A stretch of DNA of 64,000 nucleotides from assembly GCF_002222615.2 (NCBI RefSeq), contig NZ_CP022412.2:1984001-2048000 (forward strand), written 5' to 3'. Under the pieces are notes generated by a model. The model was not told the DNA's origin. It was given only the letters and a program-made list of their open reading frames with translations, and did not search any database. This document shows, piece by piece, positions 52,854 to 64,000 of this stretch. This stretch comes from Bacteroides caccae. GTDB taxonomy: Bacteria > Bacteroidota > Bacteroidia > Bacteroidales > Bacteroidaceae. Both the position numbers and the translations under genes were made by a program. Position 1 is the first letter of the stretch, and each line of letters starts with the position of its first letter.

Positions 52854-52925
52854 TAAATATAATGTTCAGTATAAAACCGAAGGATAGTAATCACACAATT
52901 CCGGTGTGGTAACTCTTAAAATAAA

Positions 52926-52969
52926 AACGGTGGACATCGGTTAGAAACTAGTGTCCACCGTTCTTTTTA
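52926..52969 (+). terminator. trxB terminator
   Basis: A perfect 11-bp stem (AACGGTGGACA at 52926-52936 with TGTCCACCGTT at 52952-52962), 15-nt loop, followed by CTTTTTAT. Confidence 0.9.
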
Positions 52970-53002
52970 TATTGGGTTTACTCTAAGATGATTTACACTT
53001 GG

Positions 53003-53101
53003 TTAATACGCTTCAATCTCGTCCAGCCATAATTCGGCAGGAATCACTTCCGGACCATTGATAAAGATAAAAGAAGAAGAGAAATACTTTCCTTCATGAT
53101 C
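53003..53101 (-). pseudogene. C-terminal remnant of a lost gene
   Basis: The minus strand encodes 33 residues, DHEGKYFSSSFIFINGPE followed by VIPAELWLDEIEAY, then TAA, closed upstream by an in-frame TAG. The LWLDEIE ending is like the last strand of beta-sandwich carbohydrate-binding domains in Bacteroides surface lipoproteins; this identity is a guess. There is no start codon or upstream domain, so it is a decayed gene end. Confidence 0.5.
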
Positions 53102-53252
53102 CTAAAATGTGTGTTAAGTTATAAATAGATTTGACACGACAAATTTGTAATTTCTGTTTGTACAAAATTATTTGTGCCTATTGCTTTATGCGTATAAAAG
53201 AATGGATCTTGTTTCTCTTTCTTATACAAGTTGTTTAAAGAACAGACTTTGT

Positions 53253-53309
53253 GTTTATAATAAAAAGTGAGAACGTTTATTATAAACGGGTCTTAAGTTT
53301 ATTATAAAC
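53253..53309. repeat. Second array of three palindromes with 22-bp period
   Basis: GTTTA-TAA-TAAAA (53253-53265, one mismatch), GTTTA-TTA-TAAAC (53275-53287) and GTTTA-TTA-TAAAC (53297-53309) repeat at exactly 22 bp. The first spacer contains GAGAAC, continuing to GAGAACG as in the 22023 array, and the second reads GGGTCTTAA against GGTAGTCTAA there. Confidence 0.85.
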
Positions 53310-53332
53310 GATTATTGGCTGAACTCTTGAAA

Positions 53333-53388
53333 AATGGGTGAAGAATTTAAACAAAATGGGGCGAAATCCTTGCAGACTTCACCCCATT
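53333..53388 (-). terminator. Terminator of the peptidase-fold locus with two alternative stems
   Basis: On the minus strand AATGGGGTGAAG (53388-53377) can pair with TTCGCCCCATT (53365-53355, followed by TTTGTTT) or with CTTCACCCATT (53343-53333, followed by TTTTC). The two stems exclude each other. The array of palindromes starts beyond the second. Confidence 0.65.
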
Positions 53389-53586
53389 GTTAGTTCTTAC
53401 AGTACACTTGCGTGTATGCAATCTGATGATTTATGTCTTTATTTTTGTATGTTTCATACCTGTTGTTTCTGATTCGTTTCTGCAAATATACAAAATAAAA
53501 AAGGAAAAGTCAATACCCTGTTTCCGTTTTGAAGCTGAATACATAGGCAATGGTGGCTGGCATCAATACCTCTTTCTCCATTGCTA

Positions 53587-54882
53587 TTATTTGAGAAGCT
53601 GTTCCTCAATGATTTGCACGTACTTCTCCGGAGTAGCTCCGACTTCGACGATAGGTTTGCCGCCTACCGGAATAAAGAAAAGAGTCGGCAGCGCCTGTAC
53701 TCCGAAATGTTTGCACAAGTCTTTCTCTTTATCCGCATTCACTTTATAAAACATGACTTTTCCCTTATACTTTTCAGCCAATTCTTCCATTTTCGGAAGC
53801 AGTCTCATGCAAGGGCCGCACCAAGTTGCCCAAAAGTCAACAACCACAGGTTTGTCTCCATTATAAACGAAATCATTTCCTGTCCGGTAATCAAAAATAT
53901 GTTCCAGAAAGAATTGGCGGGTAATCGGATTCATCTTGCCGTCTTCCGCTTTGACTTCCGTTACTTTAGCTTCCGATTCGGGAATAGGAACCAAGTCGAA
54001 AGGCTGGAAGTATATTTTTTGATGAACATAATCAATGGACAAAATGCCGTAGTCCAATAGTTTCTTTCCTAAAACAGAATGTTTCAGAGATGGATTCCTC
54101 ACGGCAAAGGCATCGTCTATCTTTGTTTTCACGAATATTGTTTCCGGTAAGGTCAGGCTTTCTTCTTCTTGTGCCGTCTCTTTATAGCCGATTGAAACTT
54201 TTTGCGGAGTTCCCTTCGGATAAAGTGTGCTACACTCGTTAAAGTCTTTTTCAGTGAGGTTGATTAATCCGTCGCTCCATGTATCTAAAATAGGAAAAAT
54301 TGTTTTATCTTGAATCGATATCGAACATACTATACCTAAACCTGTTATCAATTCAAAATTTTCTCTATAGTTTAGTTTCATGTACGAAGGTCGGTACGGC
54401 TGAGTGATAGTGATCTTTTTTCGTCGCATGTCAATGGTCAAGACGGAAGTTCGGAATACTGCAGAATTCAATACTCCCATTACTCCCAGTTTGCGTAGAT
54501 AAGGTTCATCTTCTAATATGAATGTTGGCAGACTATTGCTGAATGTATTATTGCCAATAGTTAAGGTTCCTATTTCATAGATCTTCTTTACGGGAACCTG
54601 TTTGAATTTGAAATTCTGATAACTTCCAAAACTACTGGCGTTTTTCGTGTTGATTTTCAGTTGGTTGACAGCTTCCGGAAGTAATGCATTATGTCCGGCT
54701 AAATCAAGTACAAAATTTGCTGTTTCTCCATTTATATTGGCTTCTATGATAATCTTTCCATCGATTGTTTTAAATGGAATGATTTCCGTCATACTGTTCT
54801 GTGTTTGTGCTTTTATGCCTGAAATAAAACAAAAAGCAATCAAACATATATGTATTTTTATTATCATATTTCTCAAATTCAT
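53587..54882 (-). CDS. Degenerate aspartyl-protease-fold (retropepsin-like) protein fused to thioredoxin
   Basis: A 431-aa exported protein (signal ends SGIKAQ). Residues about 35-295 are two retropepsin-like lobes, similar in plan to the neighbouring 388-aa protein. The catalytic Asp-Thr-Gly motifs are altered: FVLDLAGHNALLP (D60-L-A) and FPILDTWSDGL (D200-T-W). Aspartates remain, but the flap-supporting Gly is gone in both. Residues about 325-431 form a thioredoxin domain, VVVDFWATWCGPCMRLLP with C355 and C358. The fusion suggests a redox-active periplasmic protein that binds peptides. It is last in the operon, 13 bp from the preceding gene. Confidence 0.82.
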   Translation of the reverse strand: MNLRNMIIKIHICLIAFCFISGIKAQTQNSMTEIIPFKTIDGKIIIEANINGETANFVLDLAGHNALLPEAVNQLKINTKNASSFGSYQNFKFKQVPVKKIYEIGTLTIGNNTFSNSLPTFILEDEPYLRKLGVMGVLNSAVFRTSVLTIDMRRKKITITQPYRPSYMKLNYRENFELITGLGIVCSISIQDKTIFPILDTWSDGLINLTEKDFNECSTLYPKGTPQKVSIGYKETAQEEESLTLPETIFVKTKIDDAFAVRNPSLKHSVLGKKLLDYGILSIDYVHQKIYFQPFDLVPIPESEAKVTEVKAEDGKMNPITRQFFLEHIFDYRTGNDFVYNGDKPVVVDFWATWCGPCMRLLPKMEELAEKYKGKVMFYKVNADKEKDLCKHFGVQALPTLFFIPVGGKPIVEVGATPEKYVQIIEEQLLK

Positions 54883-54895
54883 ATTGTTTTAAAGT

Positions 54896-56062
54896 CTATC
54901 TTTCTTTTTTGATTTCTATTTTTCTCTCCTGATTGTCCTTTTTAATAATAATATATCCTGTATCTCCGGGAATAGCGTTCATTATCTCTTCTATAGCAAT
55001 CTGGCTCATCGGACAGTTGCTTAATGAGGTTCCGTTGATATTGATTACCTGATCACCGAAAGATACTTGGTCTTTCATACTATCCCATATCGTTGTGATT
55101 TCAAATCGTTCGTTGCGTGGCAATATACTCACATTCCAAAGAACGGGAGCACCTCCCATATCAGTTTTCCCTTTTTCGAATGGGAGGAAGAAGAAGCGTT
55201 TACGCATATAGTCTATAATCACTTTTCCATATTTCAGCAAGTCTACTCCTATGATTGTTTCATTCATTATGCTTGTCGTGCAGCCTATGTTTGTGAATTC
55301 CTTATCCATGATACGAATAGAAGGTATGTTCAGTTTTTTGATTTCTACAGGACTTCCCAGTCCGGTTAATCCGGCAGATACAATCCCATGTGCATGATTT
55401 GTTTCTTTTATATCGGATATATCAGCCAGCCTGTTATAATCTTGTATCGAATATAGTAGAAAACCTTCTGCACCAGTGTCAAACAATATTTTCATTGTCT
55501 GTTCTTCTTGCTTGACAGTGATAAATGAGTGATATTCCGTTTCATCCAGAAGAGGAACTCCGTCTGTTAGTTTCAGTTTCTCGGGGCGATAGGGATAGTT
55601 GATGACCATGATTCTATAGCGAGAGTCGAATGTTACTACAGATTGTGAGAATGCGTCTCCACCGAGAATGCCGGCGACTCCTAAATCTGTGAAAAAAGGA
55701 TCTTTGGGCAGCACCATTGTTTTTAATAGCTTGATTTGGTAACTATTGCCGATGGATACATTGGAGACATATGCTTCTTGATAGTTTTGTCCCTGTCCGT
55801 TCACATCAGAAATGCGTGTATATCCTGCAGCGTTTGCCTGCATTTCAAGGGCTATATCGTACATCGTTCCAGTTTTGCCACCGGTGTCGACGATATATTT
55901 CGTTTTAACGCCGTTGATTGTGACAGGAATAATGATTTTGTTGTGTACCAATTCATAGGGAATAGTGTCGCAAACCTTATTTTGGATTTGCGACATACAT
56001 TCCTTTCCATAGATTAGAAACATTAACAGCCATAAACCGGTGAGTATCTCTGCTCTTTTCAT
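54896..56062 (-). CDS. Two-lobed retropepsin-like aspartyl protease with C-terminal PDZ domain
   Basis: A 388-aa exported protein (hydrophobic N-terminus, about residues 5-20). Both lobes keep the catalytic triplet: YIVDTGGKTGTMYD (D59-T60-G61) and ILFDTGAEGFLLY (D195-T196-G197). IIGVDLLKYGKVIIDYMRKRFFFLPF ends the second lobe. Residues about 300-388 look like a PDZ domain (FGDQVININGTSLSNCP; GDTGYIIIKKDNQERKI), which usually binds C-terminal peptide tails. It is the only peptidase-fold protein of the locus with an intact active site. It starts 1 bp after the subtilase-like gene ends. Confidence 0.85.
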   Translation of the reverse strand: MKRAEILTGLWLLMFLIYGKECMSQIQNKVCDTIPYELVHNKIIIPVTINGVKTKYIVDTGGKTGTMYDIALEMQANAAGYTRISDVNGQGQNYQEAYVSNVSIGNSYQIKLLKTMVLPKDPFFTDLGVAGILGGDAFSQSVVTFDSRYRIMVINYPYRPEKLKLTDGVPLLDETEYHSFITVKQEEQTMKILFDTGAEGFLLYSIQDYNRLADISDIKETNHAHGIVSAGLTGLGSPVEIKKLNIPSIRIMDKEFTNIGCTTSIMNETIIGVDLLKYGKVIIDYMRKRFFFLPFEKGKTDMGGAPVLWNVSILPRNERFEITTIWDSMKDQVSFGDQVININGTSLSNCPMSQIAIEEIMNAIPGDTGYIIIKKDNQERKIEIKKER

Positions 56063-56063
56063 A

Positions 56064-57779
56064 TCATTTCTTTTGCGAATTCATTTTTTCTGCTTCTAGA
56101 ATAGCTTGATAGGCGTTAACAATACCTCCGGAGATACATAAATCATCAAAAAGGAATAAATCTTGTGAAGGTCTGTCGTCTACTCGAATGCCTTTTTCTA
56201 CTTCTACTCCTTTGCGTGAGGTTACACTTTTTAATAGAATATCACGGATTTGTGAGCCGGTAAGCTTTGGAAAATAAGATTTTATGAGTGTGGCTACTCC
56301 GGCTACGGTAGCGGCCGCTAGTCCTTCTCCTGTTCCTGTTCGGTAAGTGTCTCCCATGTATGCAGAATATATATCTGTTCCCGGAGCATAGATATCTAGT
56401 GTATTTGCTCCATAATTTGTATCCATAACCGGATTTCCTTTTTTATCAGAAGAGGCGACTATCATAAGATTGGTGAGTTCTTTGTCTTTACTCATTTTCC
56501 GGTTCGGGAAGAATTCTACTTTGTCCATATCGATAGATGTATTCCACGCGGGAACTATCACTATGGCTCCTTTCTTTTCCGCTTCTTTCAATTCATGGAT
56601 TATCCATTGTTTTTGTTCCTCGGGGTATAACATATTCTGTTCAGGCAATACAATCACATCTGCTCCGTGGCTGACTGCATAATGAATGGCTAATGCCATA
56701 TCTTTCAGGTAAGGTTCCCCTTCTCCTGTACAGATACGTAGCGTCATGATTTCTGCTTGATCGGCAATGCCATCGCTTCCTATTTTATTGTCACGTTTAG
56801 CAGCTATAATTCCTGCCTTCATTATGTTGGTTGCTGCATCGGATGTAAGTAGTATATTATTTCCATAATTGTTGTCATTTATGTCCATTGGGTTGTCACC
56901 TGTAATTTCTTTTCGTTGGTCCGTACCATATTTTCTTAAGGCTTCTTCGTAAGAGGCTTTAGCTGTTTCCACACTTTTCTTACCCATATTTTGGTATACA
57001 GGTTCCCATTTATCTGTATTATATAAACTGAAATAATAGGCTGTACATACAAAGGCTACTTCAGAGAGGCTGTCCCTTTCCGCTTTAGGGTCATAACAAC
57101 TTTGAAACTCCTCGACGGTTAATTCTTTTCTAGGGAAGCGCTGCTTCATGTCTCTATTAAATTTTTCAACGTATTCTTCGATGACATAAGCAAGTTGCAG
57201 ACCACTGTAAGTACTTCCTATTCTGGATTCGGGCATTACTTTATATCGATAATAGTTATATTCTTCCATGTTTTCCGGTGCAGCTACTTCCTGACGTGTT
57301 CCATTAATAATTTTATAATACTTTTTCCCATCAAAAATATAGTCTGCATATTTATCTTTCAAGCGGAAGAATTCACGTTCTCCTTCTCTCGTCAAAGACT
57401 CCACAACTTGAGCATCTTTGCCCCCGAGGAAGTTCCAACCATTAATATCATCAATGAGACCATTTCTATCATCATCTTTTTGATTTAATTTTTCTTTGGG
57501 ATTGATCCATATAGCCTGTCTCAGATCTTCGTGTTCCACGTCCATTCCGGTTCCGATTAATGCGACAATCGGCCTTTTCTTGAGTTTCTTTTTGTTAGCA
57601 TTCAAATATTCATAGGCTTTGTTAACTTCAGCGCCATATACACTGTCTCTGTCGAAAGAACAATTGTACCAGTCCAGTTCGGATTGTTTTTTTTGTTTTT
57701 CAACTTTTTGTTTTATTAATTGAGCTGATGTAATTCCACAAATAAGGCAGCATAAGATAAGGGATATAAGTTTTTTCAT
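56064..57779 (-). CDS. Subtilisin-fold (S8) protein lacking all three catalytic residues
   Basis: A 571-aa exported protein (signal MKKLISLILCCLICGITSAQ) clearly related to Bacteroidetes S8 peptidases: VALIGTGMDVEHEDLRQAIWINP, IDDINGWNFLGGKDA, AGIIAAKRDNKIGSDGIAD and YFPKLTGSQIRDILLKSVTS. Each catalytic residue is replaced. The Asp of VIDSG-type motifs is Gly76 (LIGTG), the His of HGTHVAG is Thr317 (TNIMKAG), and the Ser of GTSMA is Gly486 (GEGLA). The oxyanion Asn is kept (N413, PAWN). It is therefore probably a pseudoprotease that binds peptides or proteins. It is 33 bp from the TlpA gene. Confidence 0.88.
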   Translation of the reverse strand: MKKLISLILCCLICGITSAQLIKQKVEKQKKQSELDWYNCSFDRDSVYGAEVNKAYEYLNANKKKLKKRPIVALIGTGMDVEHEDLRQAIWINPKEKLNQKDDDRNGLIDDINGWNFLGGKDAQVVESLTREGEREFFRLKDKYADYIFDGKKYYKIINGTRQEVAAPENMEEYNYYRYKVMPESRIGSTYSGLQLAYVIEEYVEKFNRDMKQRFPRKELTVEEFQSCYDPKAERDSLSEVAFVCTAYYFSLYNTDKWEPVYQNMGKKSVETAKASYEEALRKYGTDQRKEITGDNPMDINDNNYGNNILLTSDAATNIMKAGIIAAKRDNKIGSDGIADQAEIMTLRICTGEGEPYLKDMALAIHYAVSHGADVIVLPEQNMLYPEEQKQWIIHELKEAEKKGAIVIVPAWNTSIDMDKVEFFPNRKMSKDKELTNLMIVASSDKKGNPVMDTNYGANTLDIYAPGTDIYSAYMGDTYRTGTGEGLAAATVAGVATLIKSYFPKLTGSQIRDILLKSVTSRKGVEVEKGIRVDDRPSQDLFLFDDLCISGGIVNAYQAILEAEKMNSQKK

Positions 57780-57812
57780 TGTAGGATGAGTTATGATATT
57801 TATATAGTCAGA

Positions 57813-58826
57813 TTAATTTCTAGCTTTTAATATGGCTTCACGTACTTGTTCTCCGCGGACATTACGTGCTATTAGTTTTCCTTCTTTGTCAATGACTACA
57901 AGGAAAGGGATGGCATAAAAGCCATAAGCTGTCTGGATAGCACTTGGAGCTTCATTACTTTTCGGAAAGCCTGTTTTATCCCACAGCATTACCCAGGGAA
58001 GTTTTTCTTCGTCCAGCATCTTTTTCCACTTAGCTTGGCTATCGTCTAGTGATACGCTGATGAACTCCAAATCGTCAGCTTTCAGTTCATTATATATTTT
58101 TAGCATACTACGCATCTCCTTACGACAAGGGCCGCACCAGGAAGCACAGAAATCCAAAACGACAATTTTACCGCGAAAGTCTTTTAAATTGACCTTCTGA
58201 TCATTGACATTCGTGAAAGTAAAGTCCGGACATTCTGCACCAATAATTTGGTGGGAAAGGATTTTGACTCTTTCTACCAGCCAGCGGGCAGATAAAGAGT
58301 TTCGCTCATCATCGGAAATCATATCCAATAATTTCTTATTAGAGTAATAGTCATTTACATTGGCCAGATAAGCAAGCGCGGATACCATATTAGGTGACAG
58401 TTGCGCGTTAGCTGGAAGAGAAACAGTTGCTGTGTCCGGGTCTTTATCTGCGGGTAAATATTCTTGCAGAGTGAGAAACGAGTCGATACCTTTAAACGAC
58501 AGGGAACTTTGTTCGGGATTTGTCTCATCATAGTAGCCGATGATGTTCACTTCATGGTTCTCGAAATATATTTTTTCTTCCGTTTTTCCGATTCGCAATG
58601 TGTAGATATCGGGTTGAATCAGCTTCTGTTCTGTGGCGAACTCTTTATTGGGTTGGAGTTCACAGCTAAGAATAAGTGTTCCGTTCAGGTCATTCACTTG
58701 CAAAGTGGTTGGTTTCAGTATTCTTAACTTGCCTTTAATTTGTAGTCCATCTTTGCACCACGAACTTGTCGTGGCGCATAAGAAGGACGAAAAAAATAAA
58801 ATGAAAAGTTTCTTTGTTGATATCAT
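57813..58826 (-). CDS. TlpA family thioredoxin with N-terminal DUF4369-like domain
   Basis: A 337-aa exported protein (signal ends TTSSWC). Residues about 27-180 form a beta-rich DUF4369-like domain followed by helices. Residues about 196-337 are a TlpA/ResA thioredoxin domain with active-site C231-G-P-C234 in VVLDFCASWCGPCRKEM and the cis-Pro loop AIPFLVVIDKEG. It probably reduces disulfides in the periplasm. It lies between the metallohydrolase-like lipoprotein and the subtilase-like gene. Confidence 0.88.
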   Translation of the reverse strand: MISTKKLFILFFSSFLCATTSSWCKDGLQIKGKLRILKPTTLQVNDLNGTLILSCELQPNKEFATEQKLIQPDIYTLRIGKTEEKIYFENHEVNIIGYYDETNPEQSSLSFKGIDSFLTLQEYLPADKDPDTATVSLPANAQLSPNMVSALAYLANVNDYYSNKKLLDMISDDERNSLSARWLVERVKILSHQIIGAECPDFTFTNVNDQKVNLKDFRGKIVVLDFCASWCGPCRKEMRSMLKIYNELKADDLEFISVSLDDSQAKWKKMLDEEKLPWVMLWDKTGFPKSNEAPSAIQTAYGFYAIPFLVVIDKEGKLIARNVRGEQVREAILKARN

Positions 58827-58864
58827 AGAATTGTATTTAAATAATAATCGTCACAGGAGAATAG

Positions 58865-59908
58865 TTACCAGTCAAATCCTGGCCAGGGATCGTCATCGTC
58901 TCCACCGTCTTCATCGTTGTTACCCGGTATTTCTGGATGAGGCTGAATATCCCAGTCATTCGGACCTTTAGCTATGGCTTCCAAATCAATTCCATAATTC
59001 TCCTTCATGTATTTGCGTACGAAAGCGAATTTCTCAATAATAAGCGGGAATTGACTGTATCTTTCGGTACTTTCGGCTTCCGTATAATATAATGATAGTA
59101 AGGCATATCCGGCAAATGTTGCTTCCCGGGTCGGGTTGCTGCCGTCATATTCTTCATTCAGTGTGAATTTATTTGTATTTACAGTACCTGGAAATCCCCT
59201 GTTCAAGTGAAAATCAGGACTGTCTGTTTCCCAAAAATAGAATGATATAGGAGTCACGTAATCCAAACCACGGTTGAATTCTTCGGGAATGGTAATTAGC
59301 CTTTTTTCTACAGCAGCCTTTATGATATTACCGAGAATCATTTTCCGACGTTGGCTGAACGTTACTTGGTCGTCCGGCATAATATATTTGTCGGTCATTT
59401 CTGCCTGAGGTCCGAATAAACAGGTACTCCAGTAATCCAGACCATTAATGATTTCGTGCATGGCATTATTTTGTTTGATAACGACTGCTCCCAAATCTAT
59501 TTCCGTTGCTATATGCACATTATAAGCCATATACCAATATAACGGTAATAATTTGCTTGTAACCTTTTTACACTTTTCGTTATTGAGGTAGGAGAATACA
59601 TGTTTCTTCATAAATTCCGTATAGAACTTCGCCATTTCATCGTTGATACACCCTTCCCCTTTATAATTTGTGGATGCACCTCCTGTCCAGCTACGATTGA
59701 AATCTTCATCTTGCAAATCTTTATAAATCAGATAGACGCCGAAATCTTTTTGTATTTGTGAGATGTCATCATCCCAGCTATTCGTTCCTTGGGGAACTTT
59801 GAAACGTAATTCAATGCCTCCTTCTGTGGGGGTAAGTGCATCTTCTTCATAGCATGAGGTGAATGCTATGCAAGTGAGGAGTCCCCATAATAAATATATA
59901 TTTCTCAT
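58865..59908 (-). CDS. SusCD-associated metallohydrolase-type lipoprotein lacking HExxH
   Basis: A 347-aa lipoprotein (lipobox AFTSC, Cys19). Overall text, including the C-terminal LIIEKFAFVRKYMKENYGIDLEAI, matches the substrate-import-associated zinc metallohydrolase lipoproteins that travel with SusC/SusD. In those, HEFAH lies before a P-x-x-F. Here the equivalent place reads MILGNIIKAAVEKRLITIPEEF, so HExxH has become GNIIK (193-197). The tail is Asp-rich (DEDGGDDDDPWPG). Likely a binding protein on the cell surface. First gene after susD (36 bp). Confidence 0.75.
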   Translation of the reverse strand: MRNIYLLWGLLTCIAFTSCYEEDALTPTEGGIELRFKVPQGTNSWDDDISQIQKDFGVYLIYKDLQDEDFNRSWTGGASTNYKGEGCINDEMAKFYTEFMKKHVFSYLNNEKCKKVTSKLLPLYWYMAYNVHIATEIDLGAVVIKQNNAMHEIINGLDYWSTCLFGPQAEMTDKYIMPDDQVTFSQRRKMILGNIIKAAVEKRLITIPEEFNRGLDYVTPISFYFWETDSPDFHLNRGFPGTVNTNKFTLNEEYDGSNPTREATFAGYALLSLYYTEAESTERYSQFPLIIEKFAFVRKYMKENYGIDLEAIAKGPNDWDIQPHPEIPGNNDEDGGDDDDPWPGFDW

Positions 59909-59944
59909 ATTTGTTTCTTTTTTAAGTTACTGAAATTATTAGCA

Positions 59945-61501
59945 TTAGTTTTCTCGTTTAGGAGCCAAAGGATTTTGTTCCAGTCTTTTATTTTTAATCA
60001 ATACTTCATCCGGAATCGGCATGGTATAAGAAGGGTCGTTAGATTTTAGCGTATATGTTTTACCTTCCCATTCGTGTGTGATTTGAGGCATTCCGTAGCG
60101 TCTCAGGTCGAACCAGCGTTGTCCCTCAAAACAGAGTTCTTTTCTTCTTTCTGCCTTGATAAAGTTTTTCAACGTCTCACCGGTCAATCCGGCAGGGACA
60201 ACTAACTTTTCTGGTTCGTAACGATTCTCCAATAAAGTTCTCATAGCTGAAAGCGCCTTACTTTCTTCGTTATTGTAGGCAGCAGCTTCTGCAAGATTCA
60301 GATATGCTTCACTCAGTCTAAAAGAGAGTGCAAAATTCTCTGAACCATTAGGCTCGCCCATTGCAGATAGTTGGTATTTCCCGAAAGAACTGTAATAGTC
60401 CGGATAAAAACTGTTATTTATTCTGTTATATTCTTTAGCTATGTATTTTTCTTTTCTTAAGTCTCCAACTTTAAAACTTTCCAACAGATCATCGGAAGCT
60501 GTGAAGGCTTTCCGATAGTAGGTAATATTTATTCCCCAACCGGGATAATCGGGGTCTTCCTCTTCACGAGATACTGTTTCGTTATTAAATTCTGTGAGAT
60601 CAGATACATTTCCATATAGCCAGATTACTTCTGATGATTTCAAAGACGTGAAATTGTAATAAGGTTCTACTGTTGACGTAGAAGGCAGATTATTCAAATT
60701 GATTAAAGAGAAAGACCACTCATTGATTACCTTGTCGGCATATATCGCTGCATCCTTCCAATTTTCCATGTAAAGGAAAACACGGGATTTCAATAATTGT
60801 ATCATAGGAAGGCTGATTAAATAGTTCGGTTCGTATTGCTTATCTTTCGATAAAGTGAGAAACAACCGTTCCGCTTCGCTCAAATCTTCTATAATCTGGT
60901 TATAAACTTCTTCTACACTATTACGTGTCATTAATAAATCTTCTTCGGGCAGTAGGTTACTTGTCAATTTAAGAGGTACTCCCGCTGCTTGCTTGTCATA
61001 ATTATAAGGTGCACCGAAGTGATTGACTAACATGAAGTAGTAGAATGCTCTTAGACCTAAAGCTTGGGCAATCACATAGTTCTTTTCAGCTTCTGTTCCG
61101 TTTACATCACCAATATAATCAAGTGCGGCATTTGCCCCTAAAATAAATTTATAGTAACCTTCCCAGATATTGTAAACAACGGGACTGTTCTTTTCCATTA
61201 TGAAGAACATATCCGGTTGCCATGTGAAAACTGCTTTCTTGGATTCTACATATCCTGATGAGTTGGAATCGAACTCATACCCGGTTTTGTGGAACTGGAC
61301 ATCATCATCGAGGAAACTTAAAAAACCTAGTAAATTGTTGCCTGACTTATGTTGGGGGTAAGCACTGCCGATTAGCATCTCTTGGAGGGCGTTAGCGTCT
61401 TTAGGAACATATTCGCTTTGGGATTTCGGTTCCAGAAAGTCGGAGCAGGAGGACAGTGATAATAAAACGATTCCTATAATTGTATATATAAATTTTTTCA
61501 T
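59945..61501 (-). CDS. SusD/RagB family lipoprotein
   Basis: A 518-aa lipoprotein (MKKFIYTIIGIVLLSLSSC, Cys19). SusD landmarks are CSDFLEPKSQSEYVPKDANALQEML, the TPR-like ALGLRAFYYFMLVNHFGAPY and the C-terminal FIKAERRKELCFEGQRWFDLRRYG. The SusC partner is encoded 12 bp upstream. RagB-type relatives bind peptides instead of glycans, and the peptidase-fold neighbours favour that here. Confidence 0.95.
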   Translation of the reverse strand: MKKFIYTIIGIVLLSLSSCSDFLEPKSQSEYVPKDANALQEMLIGSAYPQHKSGNNLLGFLSFLDDDVQFHKTGYEFDSNSSGYVESKKAVFTWQPDMFFIMEKNSPVVYNIWEGYYKFILGANAALDYIGDVNGTEAEKNYVIAQALGLRAFYYFMLVNHFGAPYNYDKQAAGVPLKLTSNLLPEEDLLMTRNSVEEVYNQIIEDLSEAERLFLTLSKDKQYEPNYLISLPMIQLLKSRVFLYMENWKDAAIYADKVINEWSFSLINLNNLPSTSTVEPYYNFTSLKSSEVIWLYGNVSDLTEFNNETVSREEEDPDYPGWGINITYYRKAFTASDDLLESFKVGDLRKEKYIAKEYNRINNSFYPDYYSSFGKYQLSAMGEPNGSENFALSFRLSEAYLNLAEAAAYNNEESKALSAMRTLLENRYEPEKLVVPAGLTGETLKNFIKAERRKELCFEGQRWFDLRRYGMPQITHEWEGKTYTLKSNDPSYTMPIPDEVLIKNKRLEQNPLAPKREN

Positions 61502-61513
61502 CTTTTATTTTTT

Positions 61514-64000
61514 TTAGAAACCAATGTTAATACCTAGTGAGTAATTGCGCGGAAGTACACTATTGCTGATTTCCGGGTCGAACCCGTTGAAACGTTTGCT
61601 GGCGATAACGAAGATATTATCCATGTTGAAGTTGAGTGACAAGTTCTTCATGTATATCTTTTCGCACCATTCGCGTTTCATTTGCCAAGATAAACCGATA
61701 TTACGGCAGCGTAGGAATGAACCACTTACAACCATAGCATCAGACTGCTCCCATACCGGGATTTTGAAAGTACTCTCTCCATTAGGTAATTGTATGAGAG
61801 ACATATTGCCCTTAGGCAGTGAAGGTATGATAGTATGTGCTTCGTCTCCCGGCTCTTTCCAACGGTTTAACAAATCACGGTTTATATTCGTATATGGGTC
61901 TGGCATATAGTAGGAACTGCTAAACTGCGAGTAGGGCGAGGGCAGACGTTTTTTGTTGCCAAGCAAGAGTGAGAAACTGCTGTTCAGAGTCAGTGATTTA
62001 TACCGGAAACTTAAACTTAATCCACCTGTAAAATAGGGATCTCTTTGCCCTGAATAAACCAGGTAGGTGGTCGGGTCTATCAATCGGCTTCGTTGGTCAT
62101 CCGGAATATCCAGAAGGTTGAATTGAGGTTCTCCGGTTTGTCCATTCAGACCGGCAAATGAGTATGACCAGAAACTACTAAGGGGATAACCTTGTTTGAG
62201 TATGATATCCGAGCGTCCGTTCAGAAAATCACTAGCCTTGACTTCGATATCCGTATGCCCGCCCTCGTTCCAGTTTTTAGATGCATTCAGGCTGACACTT
62301 AATGCATAGTCACGTTTTTGTATCGGAGTAAAAGTCAATGTATATTCGATACCTCTGTTGTGGATAATACCTCCGTTACGTTTCATAGAAGAAATTCCAT
62401 ATTCATAAGGCAGGTCTAATTCGACAATCGCATTAGAGCGTCTTGTGTAATATTCCAGATTCATGTTGAACAGATTAAATAATTCCAGATCGATTCCGAA
62501 ATTCCATGATTTGGTACGTTCCCAAGACAGAGTCGGGTTCGGAATCTGGGAAATAGTAGATTGATATCTATTGTATAGATCAGCTACTGTTCCTTGATTC
62601 AGAATTAGATCCGGGCTAAGACGTGTGAGTGCATTTCCCTGAATACCATAAGTGCCGCGGAAGTTTAAGTTAGTTATCCAGCCCACATATTTTCTCATAA
62701 ACCTTTCTTCTGAAGCCCTCCATGAGAAACCAAATGAGTAGGTTGGGTCAATACGATGATTGGTATCTTGTCCGAAGCGGTTGGATGCGTCATTACGTAC
62801 ATTGGCATTTATTACATAGCGATTTTTGAATGAATAGGCCAGTGTGGCAAATACAGAGAAGAAATTATCTGTAGTATTAACTTTTCTCCAACCACCGTCA
62901 TATATTCTTTGTAGAATGCCCCAACCGCTGTTTTGAGAACCGGTAATCGGTTCGAAAGCTTGTAAGGTGGTCGGGCTTGTGATGACTTCTCCTCTATCGG
63001 GAACATATCCCCATACCGTATTGTTGATTCCTTTGTTGGTAGTAGAACGCAATTCCATACCTATTAGTGCATTCAATCGGTTCTCATCATTAAAAGCCTT
63101 ACTGAATTGCAACTTGTTCTGTATGTTGTAAGAGTATTGATGTGTGTTGTTAGTAAACAATTCACCACCAAAAGGAAGTAAGGCGGCTTTGAATTCTTTA
63201 CTGGCTGGTGAAACCGAGTTAAAGTCATATCCGCGATAATTCTCGGCAATGTAAAATGTCCGTTCCGATTCCCATGCCTCGTTTGTACTATTATTATCCG
63301 AATATCCTCCGGTGAATTGATAAGTCAGCCAGTCTAGAATGTTCCATTTTAAGTCAAGTGAGGCGGACAGATAGCTGGATGCTGATTTTGAGCCGCTATT
63401 CTCCCGTTCATTAATGAAATTGTATGATAACGATCTTACTCCTTCATTATATGGATAGGAGGCTTTCATCTGATAATAGACATCAGGGTCTATTGAGCGG
63501 TTAGTGGTAGTGGCATATCCTAAAGGATTGACTCCTCCCGCAAATCCTTTATTCGTGTTTACACTTCCATTGATAGCTGCATTTATGGTTAGTTTCTGTA
63601 CCGGACGTATAGTGATAGCAAGACGGCCGGTCATGCGTTCACTATCATTTCCAATTTCTTGTCCTTCGCTTTTGGAATATCCCATAGAAGCCGAATAACT
63701 GTATTTGTTTGTTCCGCCGGAAACACTTAGATTGTGATTATGGCTGAAAGCGCGGCGGGTTAGTAGTTTGAACCAATCTGTGTTTTGTGTTTCCAAAACA
63801 TTCCGTTGGGCAAGGAACTCTTCAGAGGATATATCATGTGATAAATACATATTCAATAATCCTTCGTACGTGTACATTTGTTTGATAGGTTCAGCACTGT
63901 AAGGAGTTCCCCAGTTGAAAGCTTCTTGTGAGAACAGTACCCTTTCTTTTGAATTCATATAATTGAACTGATCGTAATTAGGTCGTGTTCCTATTATAAA
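61514..64000 (-). CDS. SusC/RagA family TonB-linked outer membrane protein (5' end outside window)
   Basis: The frame is open from the stop at 61514 to the window edge. The part present (829 codons) is the barrel and end of the plug: FNYMNSKERVLFSQEAF, HNHNLSVSGGTNKYSYSASMGYSKSEGQ, NFRGTYGIQGNALTRLSPDL and the barrel end NYSLGINIGF. The signal, regulatory domain and most of the plug lie beyond the edge, so ATG 63958 is an internal Met and not the start. First visible gene of the peptidase-fold operon. Confidence 0.93.
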   Translation of the reverse strand, partial: FIIGTRPNYDQFNYMNSKERVLFSQEAFNWGTPYSAEPIKQMYTYEGLLNMYLSHDISSEEFLAQRNVLETQNTDWFKLLTRRAFSHNHNLSVSGGTNKYSYSASMGYSKSEGQEIGNDSERMTGRLAITIRPVQKLTINAAINGSVNTNKGFAGGVNPLGYATTTNRSIDPDVYYQMKASYPYNEGVRSLSYNFINERENSGSKSASSYLSASLDLKWNILDWLTYQFTGGYSDNNSTNEAWESERTFYIAENYRGYDFNSVSPASKEFKAALLPFGGELFTNNTHQYSYNIQNKLQFSKAFNDENRLNALIGMELRSTTNKGINNTVWGYVPDRGEVITSPTTLQAFEPITGSQNSGWGILQRIYDGGWRKVNTTDNFFSVFATLAYSFKNRYVINANVRNDASNRFGQDTNHRIDPTYSFGFSWRASEERFMRKYVGWITNLNFRGTYGIQGNALTRLSPDLILNQGTVADLYNRYQSTISQIPNPTLSWERTKSWNFGIDLELFNLFNMNLEYYTRRSNAIVELDLPYEYGISSMKRNGGIIHNRGIEYTLTFTPIQKRDYALSVSLNASKNWNEGGHTDIEVKASDFLNGRSDIILKQGYPLSSFWSYSFAGLNGQTGEPQFNLLDIPDDQRSRLIDPTTYLVYSGQRDPYFTGGLSLSFRYKSLTLNSSFSLLLGNKKRLPSPYSQFSSSYYMPDPYTNINRDLLNRWKEPGDEAHTIIPSLPKGNMSLIQLPNGESTFKIPVWEQSDAMVVSGSFLRCRNIGLSWQMKREWCEKIYMKNLSLNFNMDNIFVIASKRFNGFDPEISNSVLPRNYSLGINIGF

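What the first reader, a model, noticed from the sequence alone, without database searches (positions are those of the whole stretch)
53587..64000. A SusC/SusD locus whose peptidase-fold partners are mostly catalytically dead
Behind one SusC/SusD pair the same strand encodes four peptidase-fold proteins from three unrelated folds (zinc metallohydrolase lipoprotein, subtilisin, and two aspartyl proteases) plus two thioredoxin domains. The metallohydrolase has lost HExxH, the subtilisin all three catalytic residues, and one aspartyl protease both D-T-G motifs; only the PDZ-containing aspartyl protease keeps its active site. Independent loss in three folds within one operon argues for selection towards binding. 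Inference: a peptide or small-protein capture and redox-handling system using peptidase folds as receptors, with one working protease.
Basis: partly seen in the sequence, partly recalled or inferred. Interest (0 to 1): 0.85.

Follow-up and report, generated by a model that had tools for sequence, protein, structure and literature searches.

The report
Uptake operon with repurposed protease folds
A gut Bacteroides gene cluster for importing an unknown, perhaps peptide- or protein-like nutrient carries several protease-shaped proteins, at least two of which lack their cutting residues yet are kept under selection, which suggests they now hold or sense something rather than cut it.

Summary
Real, and part of a conserved cassette (about 13.3 kb here) running past the window end: FecI-FecR-SusC(STN)-SusD-LP-Trx-S8-(AspX)-AspPDZ-AspTrx, found in Bacteroides, Butyricimonas and other Bacteroidales. 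Two of four peptidase folds clearly lack catalytic residues: LP, a remote TIGR04549 homologue without HExxH, and the subtilisin, whose clade shares a changed, conserved pocket. AspTrx was over-called: it keeps both aspartates in 116 of 118 sequences; only Thr-Gly positions changed. AspPDZ is intact. dN/dS of S8 and AspTrx is as low as that of SusC, so recent decay is refuted. Triad loss probably happened twice in such operons; a sister operon with an intact triad survives. New: SusC, SusD and LP are exchanged as a block between otherwise near-identical operons, with breakpoints in FecR and Trx, while the periplasmic part stays constant. Best reading: a TonB-dependent uptake system, probably for peptides or small proteins, with a swappable receptor that includes non-catalytic LP and a constant periplasmic hold-reduce-cleave module. 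Cargo unknown; binding untested.

The parts
61514..64000 (-). SusC/RagA TonB-linked transporter, C-terminal 828 aa; the full ORF (1189 aa: STN, CarbopepD_reg, Plug, barrel) continues beyond the window (L005:1515-5084)
   Evidence: TIGR04056 345 bits for the window part (below its cut-off of 368, as the part is incomplete); full-length domains; ORF
59945..61501 (-). SusD/RagB lipoprotein lid, 518 aa (lipobox LSSC)
   Evidence: PF14322 74.8 bits, PF07980 74.4 bits; lipobox
58865..59908 (-). LP: lipoprotein of the TIGR04549/Peptidase_Mx1 zincin fold without HExxH; inferred surface co-receptor
57813..58826 (-). TlpA/ResA-like thioredoxin, 337 aa, CGPC intact
   Evidence: PF00578 82.8 bits; W-C-G-[PG]-C in the 10 loci aligned
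56064..57779 (-). Subtilisin-fold (S8) pseudoprotease, 571 aa; Gly76, Thr317 and Gly486 at the Asp, His and Ser positions
   Evidence: PF00082 79.7 bits; orthologues; changed pocket; trees
54896..56062 (-). AspPDZ: two-domain retropepsin-like aspartyl protease with both DTG motifs, plus a C-terminal PDZ-like part
   Evidence: PF13975 37.6 bits; motifs; PDZ weak
53587..54882 (-). AspTrx: pepsin-like bilobal domain with D-L-A-G / D-T-W-S, fused to a TrxP-like thioredoxin with CGPC

Best explanation
A FecI/FecR-controlled, TonB-dependent uptake system for a peptide or small protein, probably cysteine-containing. Outside, SusD and LP (a zincin fold without the HExxH metal motif) capture the cargo for SusC; SusC-STN and the FecR C-terminus report occupancy and switch on the operon. 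In the periplasm the TlpA-like thioredoxin and the TrxP-like domain of AspTrx reduce the cargo, AspPDZ (or AspX) cuts it, and the subtilisin pseudoprotease (perhaps with the pepsin-like cleft of AspTrx) holds or presents the chain, or regulates the cutting, without cutting itself. Shown: gene content, motif loss, changed conserved pocket, purifying selection, block exchange of SusC-SusD-LP against a constant periplasmic part. Inferred: cargo class, reduction of cargo, holding or presenting, division of labour.
For: Conserved gene order in Bacteroides and Butyricimonas. Full-length SusC with STN, next to FecR and FecI. S8: comparing 33 clade rows with 42 rows that keep the triad (the grouping itself used the triad), the oxyanion Asn is Glu or Asp in 31 of 33, and other pocket positions differ in a fixed way: Gln381 in 32 of 33 and Pro356 in 33 of 33, where the relatives have Gly 42 of 42 and Glu 42 of 42. 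Low dN/dS. LP: no HExxH in 40 of 40, nearest structure the zinc lipoprotein 4l7a, highest median dN/dS of the operon genes (0.192), exchanged together with SusC and SusD. At least one aspartyl protease with two D-[TS]-G motifs in 23 of 25 loci that hold a triad-less or partial S8, counting the frameshifted copy of L009; the two exceptions are L012, which has an intact S8 paralogue, and L137, whose copy stops after the first motif. S8 relatives with intact triads lie beside SusC, SusD and an S9-like gene with an intact G-H-S-G-G motif in 5 of 9 contexts chosen and read with flanks, and an M16 protease with intact HxxEH follows in 2 distant versions of the operon, which points to protein or peptide processing. 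SusC-type transporters for oligopeptides exist (RagAB, Bt2263-64; passages of PMC7782687).
Against: No cargo, binding or expression data. FecI/FecR-STN loci serve many substrates (recalled), so regulation does not name the cargo. Thioredoxin-like proteins are common in Bacteroidales operons (recalled) and may serve the operon's own cysteines. AspTrx keeps both aspartates, so it may still cut. A GH85 gene in L133 and a GH20 gene beside L006, with same-length ORFs beside L007 and L008, leave a glycopeptide or glycan cargo open.
Confidence: 0.45

Rival explanations
1. The subtilisin pseudoprotease is a regulator or signalling node, not a cargo holder: it binds and gates the working aspartyl protease or signals through FecR, as CspC and CspA act with CspB in C. 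difficile.
For: NCBIfam's CspC pseudoprotease model is among the S8 matches (35.1 bits; far below its cut-off of 675). [quoted passage not shown] A conserved but non-catalytic pocket fits a protein-protein or small-ligand site.
Against: The other S8 gene found in this genome has a triad-like set (IDAG, SHGM, GTSFSSP) and is not beside this operon, so no related S8 partner is at hand. S8 does not co-vary with the exchanged FecR C-terminus, SusC, SusD and LP, which weakens a direct signalling contact with the receptor block.
Confidence: 0.25
2. AspTrx is still a protease with an altered motif, and only LP and S8 are non-catalytic; the locus is a peptide-digesting uptake locus with two scaffold proteins.
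For: Both catalytic-position aspartates are kept in 116 of 118 sequences. Plasmodium histo-aspartic protease, whose site is altered, is among the best fold matches (that it is altered and active is recalled).
Against: Thr-Gly of the first motif is Leu-Ala (Leu 116 and Ala 103 of 118) and Gly of the second is Trp (116 of 118). The distant AspTrx of L060 has lost both aspartates.
Confidence: 0.3
3. The cargo is a metal-bearing peptide or protein (iron or haem piracy), as in the Fus ferredoxin system, and the thioredoxins and protease release the metal.
For: FecI/FecR control. M16 proteases with intact HxxEH in L061 and L063, the family of FusC and PqqL (abstract of PMC6793856). A TIGR04549-SusD-SusC gene run of Riemerella anatipestifer is in a table of genes that change under iron limitation (table passage of PMC5429918).
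Against: No M16 gene is among the ORFs listed for the window, L006-L009 and L059, and L073-L076 hold no ORF over 700 aa except SusC. The Riemerella gene is named as the zinc-binding family, not this LP clade. No iron-box or expression test was done.
Confidence: 0.15
4. The peptidase genes are decaying leftovers kept by hitch-hiking.
For: Catalytic residues are lost; S8 matches of this kind are in only 10 of 149 Bacteroides genomes searched.
Against: Median dN/dS 0.045 (S8) and 0.047 (AspTrx), open reading frames intact in the window; position 76 is Gly in 112 of 112 full-length homologues examined; gene order kept between genera. Single copies elsewhere are broken (L009 frameshifts; L137).
Confidence: 0.02

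Closest known systems
SusCD-type oligopeptide importers (RagAB of P. gingivalis, Bt2263-64)
   Same: SusC barrel plus SusD lid; oligopeptide ligands in the known cases (passages of PMC7782687)
   Different: The passages read mention no periplasmic pseudoprotease or pepsin-like/thioredoxin fusion; the two primary papers were not held; cargo unknown here
Protease-associated import systems (Fus of Pectobacterium; YddB/PqqL)
   Same: TonB-dependent transporter genetically linked to a periplasmic protease (abstract of PMC6793856); M16 members occur in two relatives, L061 and L063
   Different: Transporter is SusC, not FusA-type; the working protease in the window is aspartyl, not M16; pseudoproteases are prominent. 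The main text of PMC6793856 has no occurrence of SusD, thioredoxin, subtilisin or aspartyl
CspC/CspA subtilisin pseudoproteases of C. difficile
   Same: Subtilisin fold with lost catalytic residues and a new role (PMC6636752 abstract and introduction)
   Different: Scores far below the family cut-off; spore protein of a Gram-positive; here the protein has an export signal and sits beside a SusCD transporter, with all three residues changed
TIGR04549 substrate import-associated zinc metallohydrolase lipoproteins (structure 4l7a; L027 in this genome)
   Same: Fold, lipoprotein signal, and by name an association with substrate import
   Different: LP lacks HExxH and fails the family cut-off
TrxP of Bacteroides fragilis (3hxs)
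   Same: C-terminal domain of AspTrx, 46% identity, CGPC
   Different: Here fused to a pepsin-like domain

Membership tests
SusC/SusD uptake locus | Adjacent SusC (STN/Plug/barrel) and SusD genes | tested here: met
SusC/SusD uptake locus | Dedicated regulator at the locus (ECF sigma and anti-sigma) | tested here: met
   FecI and FecR directly upstream
SusCD oligopeptide importer (RagAB-like) | Binds and imports peptides | not testable with these tools
   no binding data
Peptidase S8 as an active protease | Asp-His-Ser triad | tested here: not met
   Gly, Thr, Gly at 76, 317, 486
Peptidase S8 fold | PF00082 above gathering score | tested here: met
   79.7 versus 21.8 bits
TIGR04549 zinc metallohydrolase lipoprotein | HExxH and score above cut-off | tested here: not met
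   no HExxH; 14.8 versus 75 bits
TIGR04549 zinc metallohydrolase lipoprotein | Common ancestry (fold) | tested here: met
Clan AA aspartyl protease (AspPDZ) | Two D-[TS]-G motifs | tested here: met
   DTGG and DTGA
Clan AA aspartyl protease (AspTrx) | Two D-[TS]-G motifs | tested here: not met
   D-L-A and D-T-W; both Asp kept
Clan AA aspartyl protease (AspTrx) | Pepsin-like bilobal fold | tested here: met
Protease-associated import system (Fus type) | FusA/YddB-type transporter | tested here: not met
   transporter matches TIGR04056 SusC/RagA
Protease-associated import system (Fus type) | M16 protease in the cluster | tested here: not met
   none among the window ORFs listed; present in L061 and L063
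CspC-type pseudoprotease | Score above the family cut-off | tested here: not met
   35.1 bits against a cut-off of 675

The most novel reading that the evidence does not exclude
A so far undescribed protein-import machine of Bacteroidales: a swappable receptor cassette (FecR C-terminus, SusC, SusD, pseudo-zincin LP, N-terminus of Trx) is recombined between species to change the cargo, while a constant periplasmic module of pseudo-subtilisin, pepsin-like/thioredoxin fusion and working aspartyl protease acts as a hold-reduce-cleave chaperone for disulfide-bearing small proteins.
Probability: 0.28. Interest if true: 0.85.

Novelty: new variant of a known kind. Interest (0 to 1): 0.62.

Why it matters
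SusCD loci are mostly read as glycan systems (recalled). This one is a conserved, protease-fold-rich SusCD locus without a glycoside hydrolase in its core, in which two enzyme folds have lost their catalytic residues and are kept under selection. If the model holds, it gives gut Bacteroides a dedicated route for peptides or small proteins, with receptor alleles exchanged by recombination, and a natural series (intact, half-lost and fully lost subtilisins in the same kind of operon) in which the change from enzyme to binding protein can be followed. The AspTrx correction also warns against calling an altered motif dead.
Full report
WHAT IS THERE. The window is bases 1984001-2048000 of a 4.57-Mb single-contig genome. 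Its only TIGR04549 match (L027) equals or nearly equals the solved structure 4l7a (635 bits over 270 residues), whose title names Bacteroides caccae ATCC 43185, so the organism is B. caccae or very near it. The reported genes lie head to tail on the minus strand down to 53587. The operon goes on past the window end: full SusC (1189 aa, with STN, CarbopepD_reg and Plug), FecR and an ECF sigma factor, then a Crp-like regulator and a large glutamine synthetase as neighbours (names by recall). From FecI to AspTrx the cassette is about 13.3 kb.

NOT DECAY BUT CHANGE. Comparing 33 clade members with 42 relatives that keep the triad (grouping by the triad, exclusions under Tried and rejected), positions outside the triad also differ in a fixed way: the oxyanion Asn (42 of 42) is Glu or Asp in 31 of 33 (the window and L006 keep Asn); the S1-wall Ser and Gly (42 of 42 each) are Pro in 26 and Gln in 32 of 33, followed by Asn in 29; Asp-Glu-x-Asp (42 of 42 at its three fixed positions) is Glu (30 of 33)-Pro (33)-Tyr (30)-Leu (29). 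In the 112-row set Gln381, Asn382, Glu355, Tyr357 and Leu358 are invariant. The role of these positions in subtilisin is recalled. Median pairwise dN/dS (NG86, up to 10 Bacteroides loci) is 0.045 for S8, 0.047 AspTrx, 0.051 SusC, 0.069 AspPDZ, 0.076 FecI, 0.087 FecR, 0.091 SusD, 0.097 Trx and 0.192 LP, against 0.016 for Crp, 0.031 for TrxB and 0.091 for LolA next door. All 10 S8 copies in that set lack the triad.

ORIGIN OF THE LOSS. In a 51-row tree the 16 triad-less rows form one side of a branch (100/99). With paralogues from the family of G405 added (60 rows) 22 triad-less rows form one clade (100/100); L018 (no triad) and L127/L128 (Asp kept, His to Glu, Ser to Arg or Lys) form another (98/98), whose weakly supported sister (89/64) is L110, with intact triad. 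L110's operon (L139) has the layout LP-Trx-S8-hypothetical-Asp. The least number of changes is two; one origin appears in 10% of bootstrap trees. So an active subtilisin was probably ancestral in this kind of operon and was lost twice.

CONTEXT. In 26 tabulated loci (25 with triad-less or partial S8, plus L139) LP never has HExxH (26 of 26). An aspartyl protease with two D-[TS]-G motifs is present in 23 of the 25, if the frameshifted copy of L009 is counted. L012 has none but carries a triad-intact S8 paralogue and a C25-like ORF. L137's copy is a 189-aa ORF that stops after the first motif, 63 bases from the contig end. Two relatives (L061, L063) add an M16 protease with intact HxxEH. Of nine contexts read around triad-intact S8 genes with flanks (L065-L072 and L134), five (L065, L067, L069, L070, L134) have SusC and SusD and a gene of 761-809 aa with G-H-S-G-G, S9-like (Pfam confirms DPPIV_N and Peptidase_S9 for L069 and for the like gene of L131), and four (L066, L068, L071, L072) have no SusD beside them. 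L130-L132 and L139, also with intact S8, are not in this count: they show FecI/FecR, S9-like or LP genes but no SusC-SusD pair beside S8 in the stretch read.

DISTRIBUTION. S8 matches at E 1e-60 occur in 10 of 149 Bacteroides genomes. In the family of G405, 13 of 56 genomes match at 1e-40, some with several paralogues; of 28 S8 proteins read there 19 lack the triad, 2 are partial and 7 intact. In five Bacteroides loci with both flanks read (window, L007, L009, L073, L075) the cassette sits between crp and trxB, with the GH20-sized ORF between it and trxB in L007; in L006 and L008 the right flank differs beyond that ORF and trxB was not reached. In G696 (L140) only about 0.3 kb lies between crp and trxB, and in G688 (L141) a GH20 gene: two empty sites. 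So the cassette is gained or lost as a unit, as far as these seven show.

RECEPTOR SWAP. B. xylanisolvens XB1A (L007) and G726 (L075) are near-identical in FecI (98%, dS 0.13), S8 (97%, 0.12), AspPDZ (97%, 0.15), AspTrx (98%, 0.21) and TrxB (99%, 0.18), but SusC is 76%, SusD 58% and LP 44% identical, with dS not computable or 2.2. DNA identity in 300-base steps is 90-98% up to L007 base 2400, falls to 78% near the FecR C-terminus, stays at 53-82% through SusC, SusD, LP and the start of Trx, and returns to 91-99% from inside Trx through AspTrx. Gene trees agree: L075 groups with L059 and L074 for SusC, SusD and LP, but with L007 for S8 (97/97) and AspTrx (93/91). I infer homologous exchange of a receptor block. 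It makes LP part of the receptor and the pseudo-subtilisin part of a constant, cargo-tolerant module. The pair was chosen because it shows the pattern most clearly; the other pairs computed are.

MECHANISM. SusC with its lid SusD, and LP beside them, take up the cargo; STN-FecR-FecI regulate (established FecIR logic, recalled). LP and SusD have lipoboxes, and LP's following acidic residues fit surface lipoproteins (recalled). S8, AspPDZ, AspTrx and SusC have signal peptides whose likely cut exposes Gln, as the Bacteroidetes Q-rule predicts (start of the abstract of PMC5837995 in the listing; cut sites judged by eye), so the first three should be periplasmic. There the two CGPC domains would reduce, AspPDZ cut, and S8 hold, present or regulate. 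The last sentence is inference. Confidence 0.45.

NOVELTY. Known kinds nearby are SusCD peptide importers, Fus-type protease-associated import and CspC-type pseudoproteases; none met all defining features tested (membership table). The ten paper searches listed no paper that I recognised as treating this operon; the library is open-licence PMC only.

Noticed in passing
L007:2400-9300 versus L075: Receptor block (FecR C-terminus, SusC, SusD, LP, N-terminus of Trx) exchanged between otherwise near-identical operons.
   Followed up: yes
L012:13244-14683 and L133:13493-14974: C25(gingipain)-like exported ORFs, unmatched by Pfam, beside the pseudo-S8 loci of Butyricimonas-type genomes (resemblance recalled).
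   Followed up: partly
L061:12863-15691, L063:13111-15927: M16 peptidases with intact HxxEH at the end of distant versions of the operon.
   Followed up: partly
L133:8264-9892 (L127; also L128): S8 paralogue with Asp kept, His to Glu and Ser to Arg/Lys: a possible second, partial loss.
   Followed up: partly
L133:11158-13392: GH85 (endo-beta-N-acetylglucosaminidase family) gene inside a pseudo-S8 locus, a hint of glycoprotein cargo.
   Followed up: no
window 52854-53586: The GH20-sized ORF that follows AspTrx in L006-L008 is missing; about 0.7 kb without a long gene lies between AspTrx and trxB.
   Followed up: partly
L136:4789-7325: Two ORFs that look like transposases lie between SusD and an LP with cut N-terminus (family not checked).
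   Followed up: no
L009: Crp, FecR and AspPDZ are split by frameshifts in B. reticulotermitis JCM 10512; assembly error or decay not decided.
   Followed up: no
L010:15360-19547: Three extra thioredoxin-like genes downstream in Butyricimonas synergistica.
   Followed up: no
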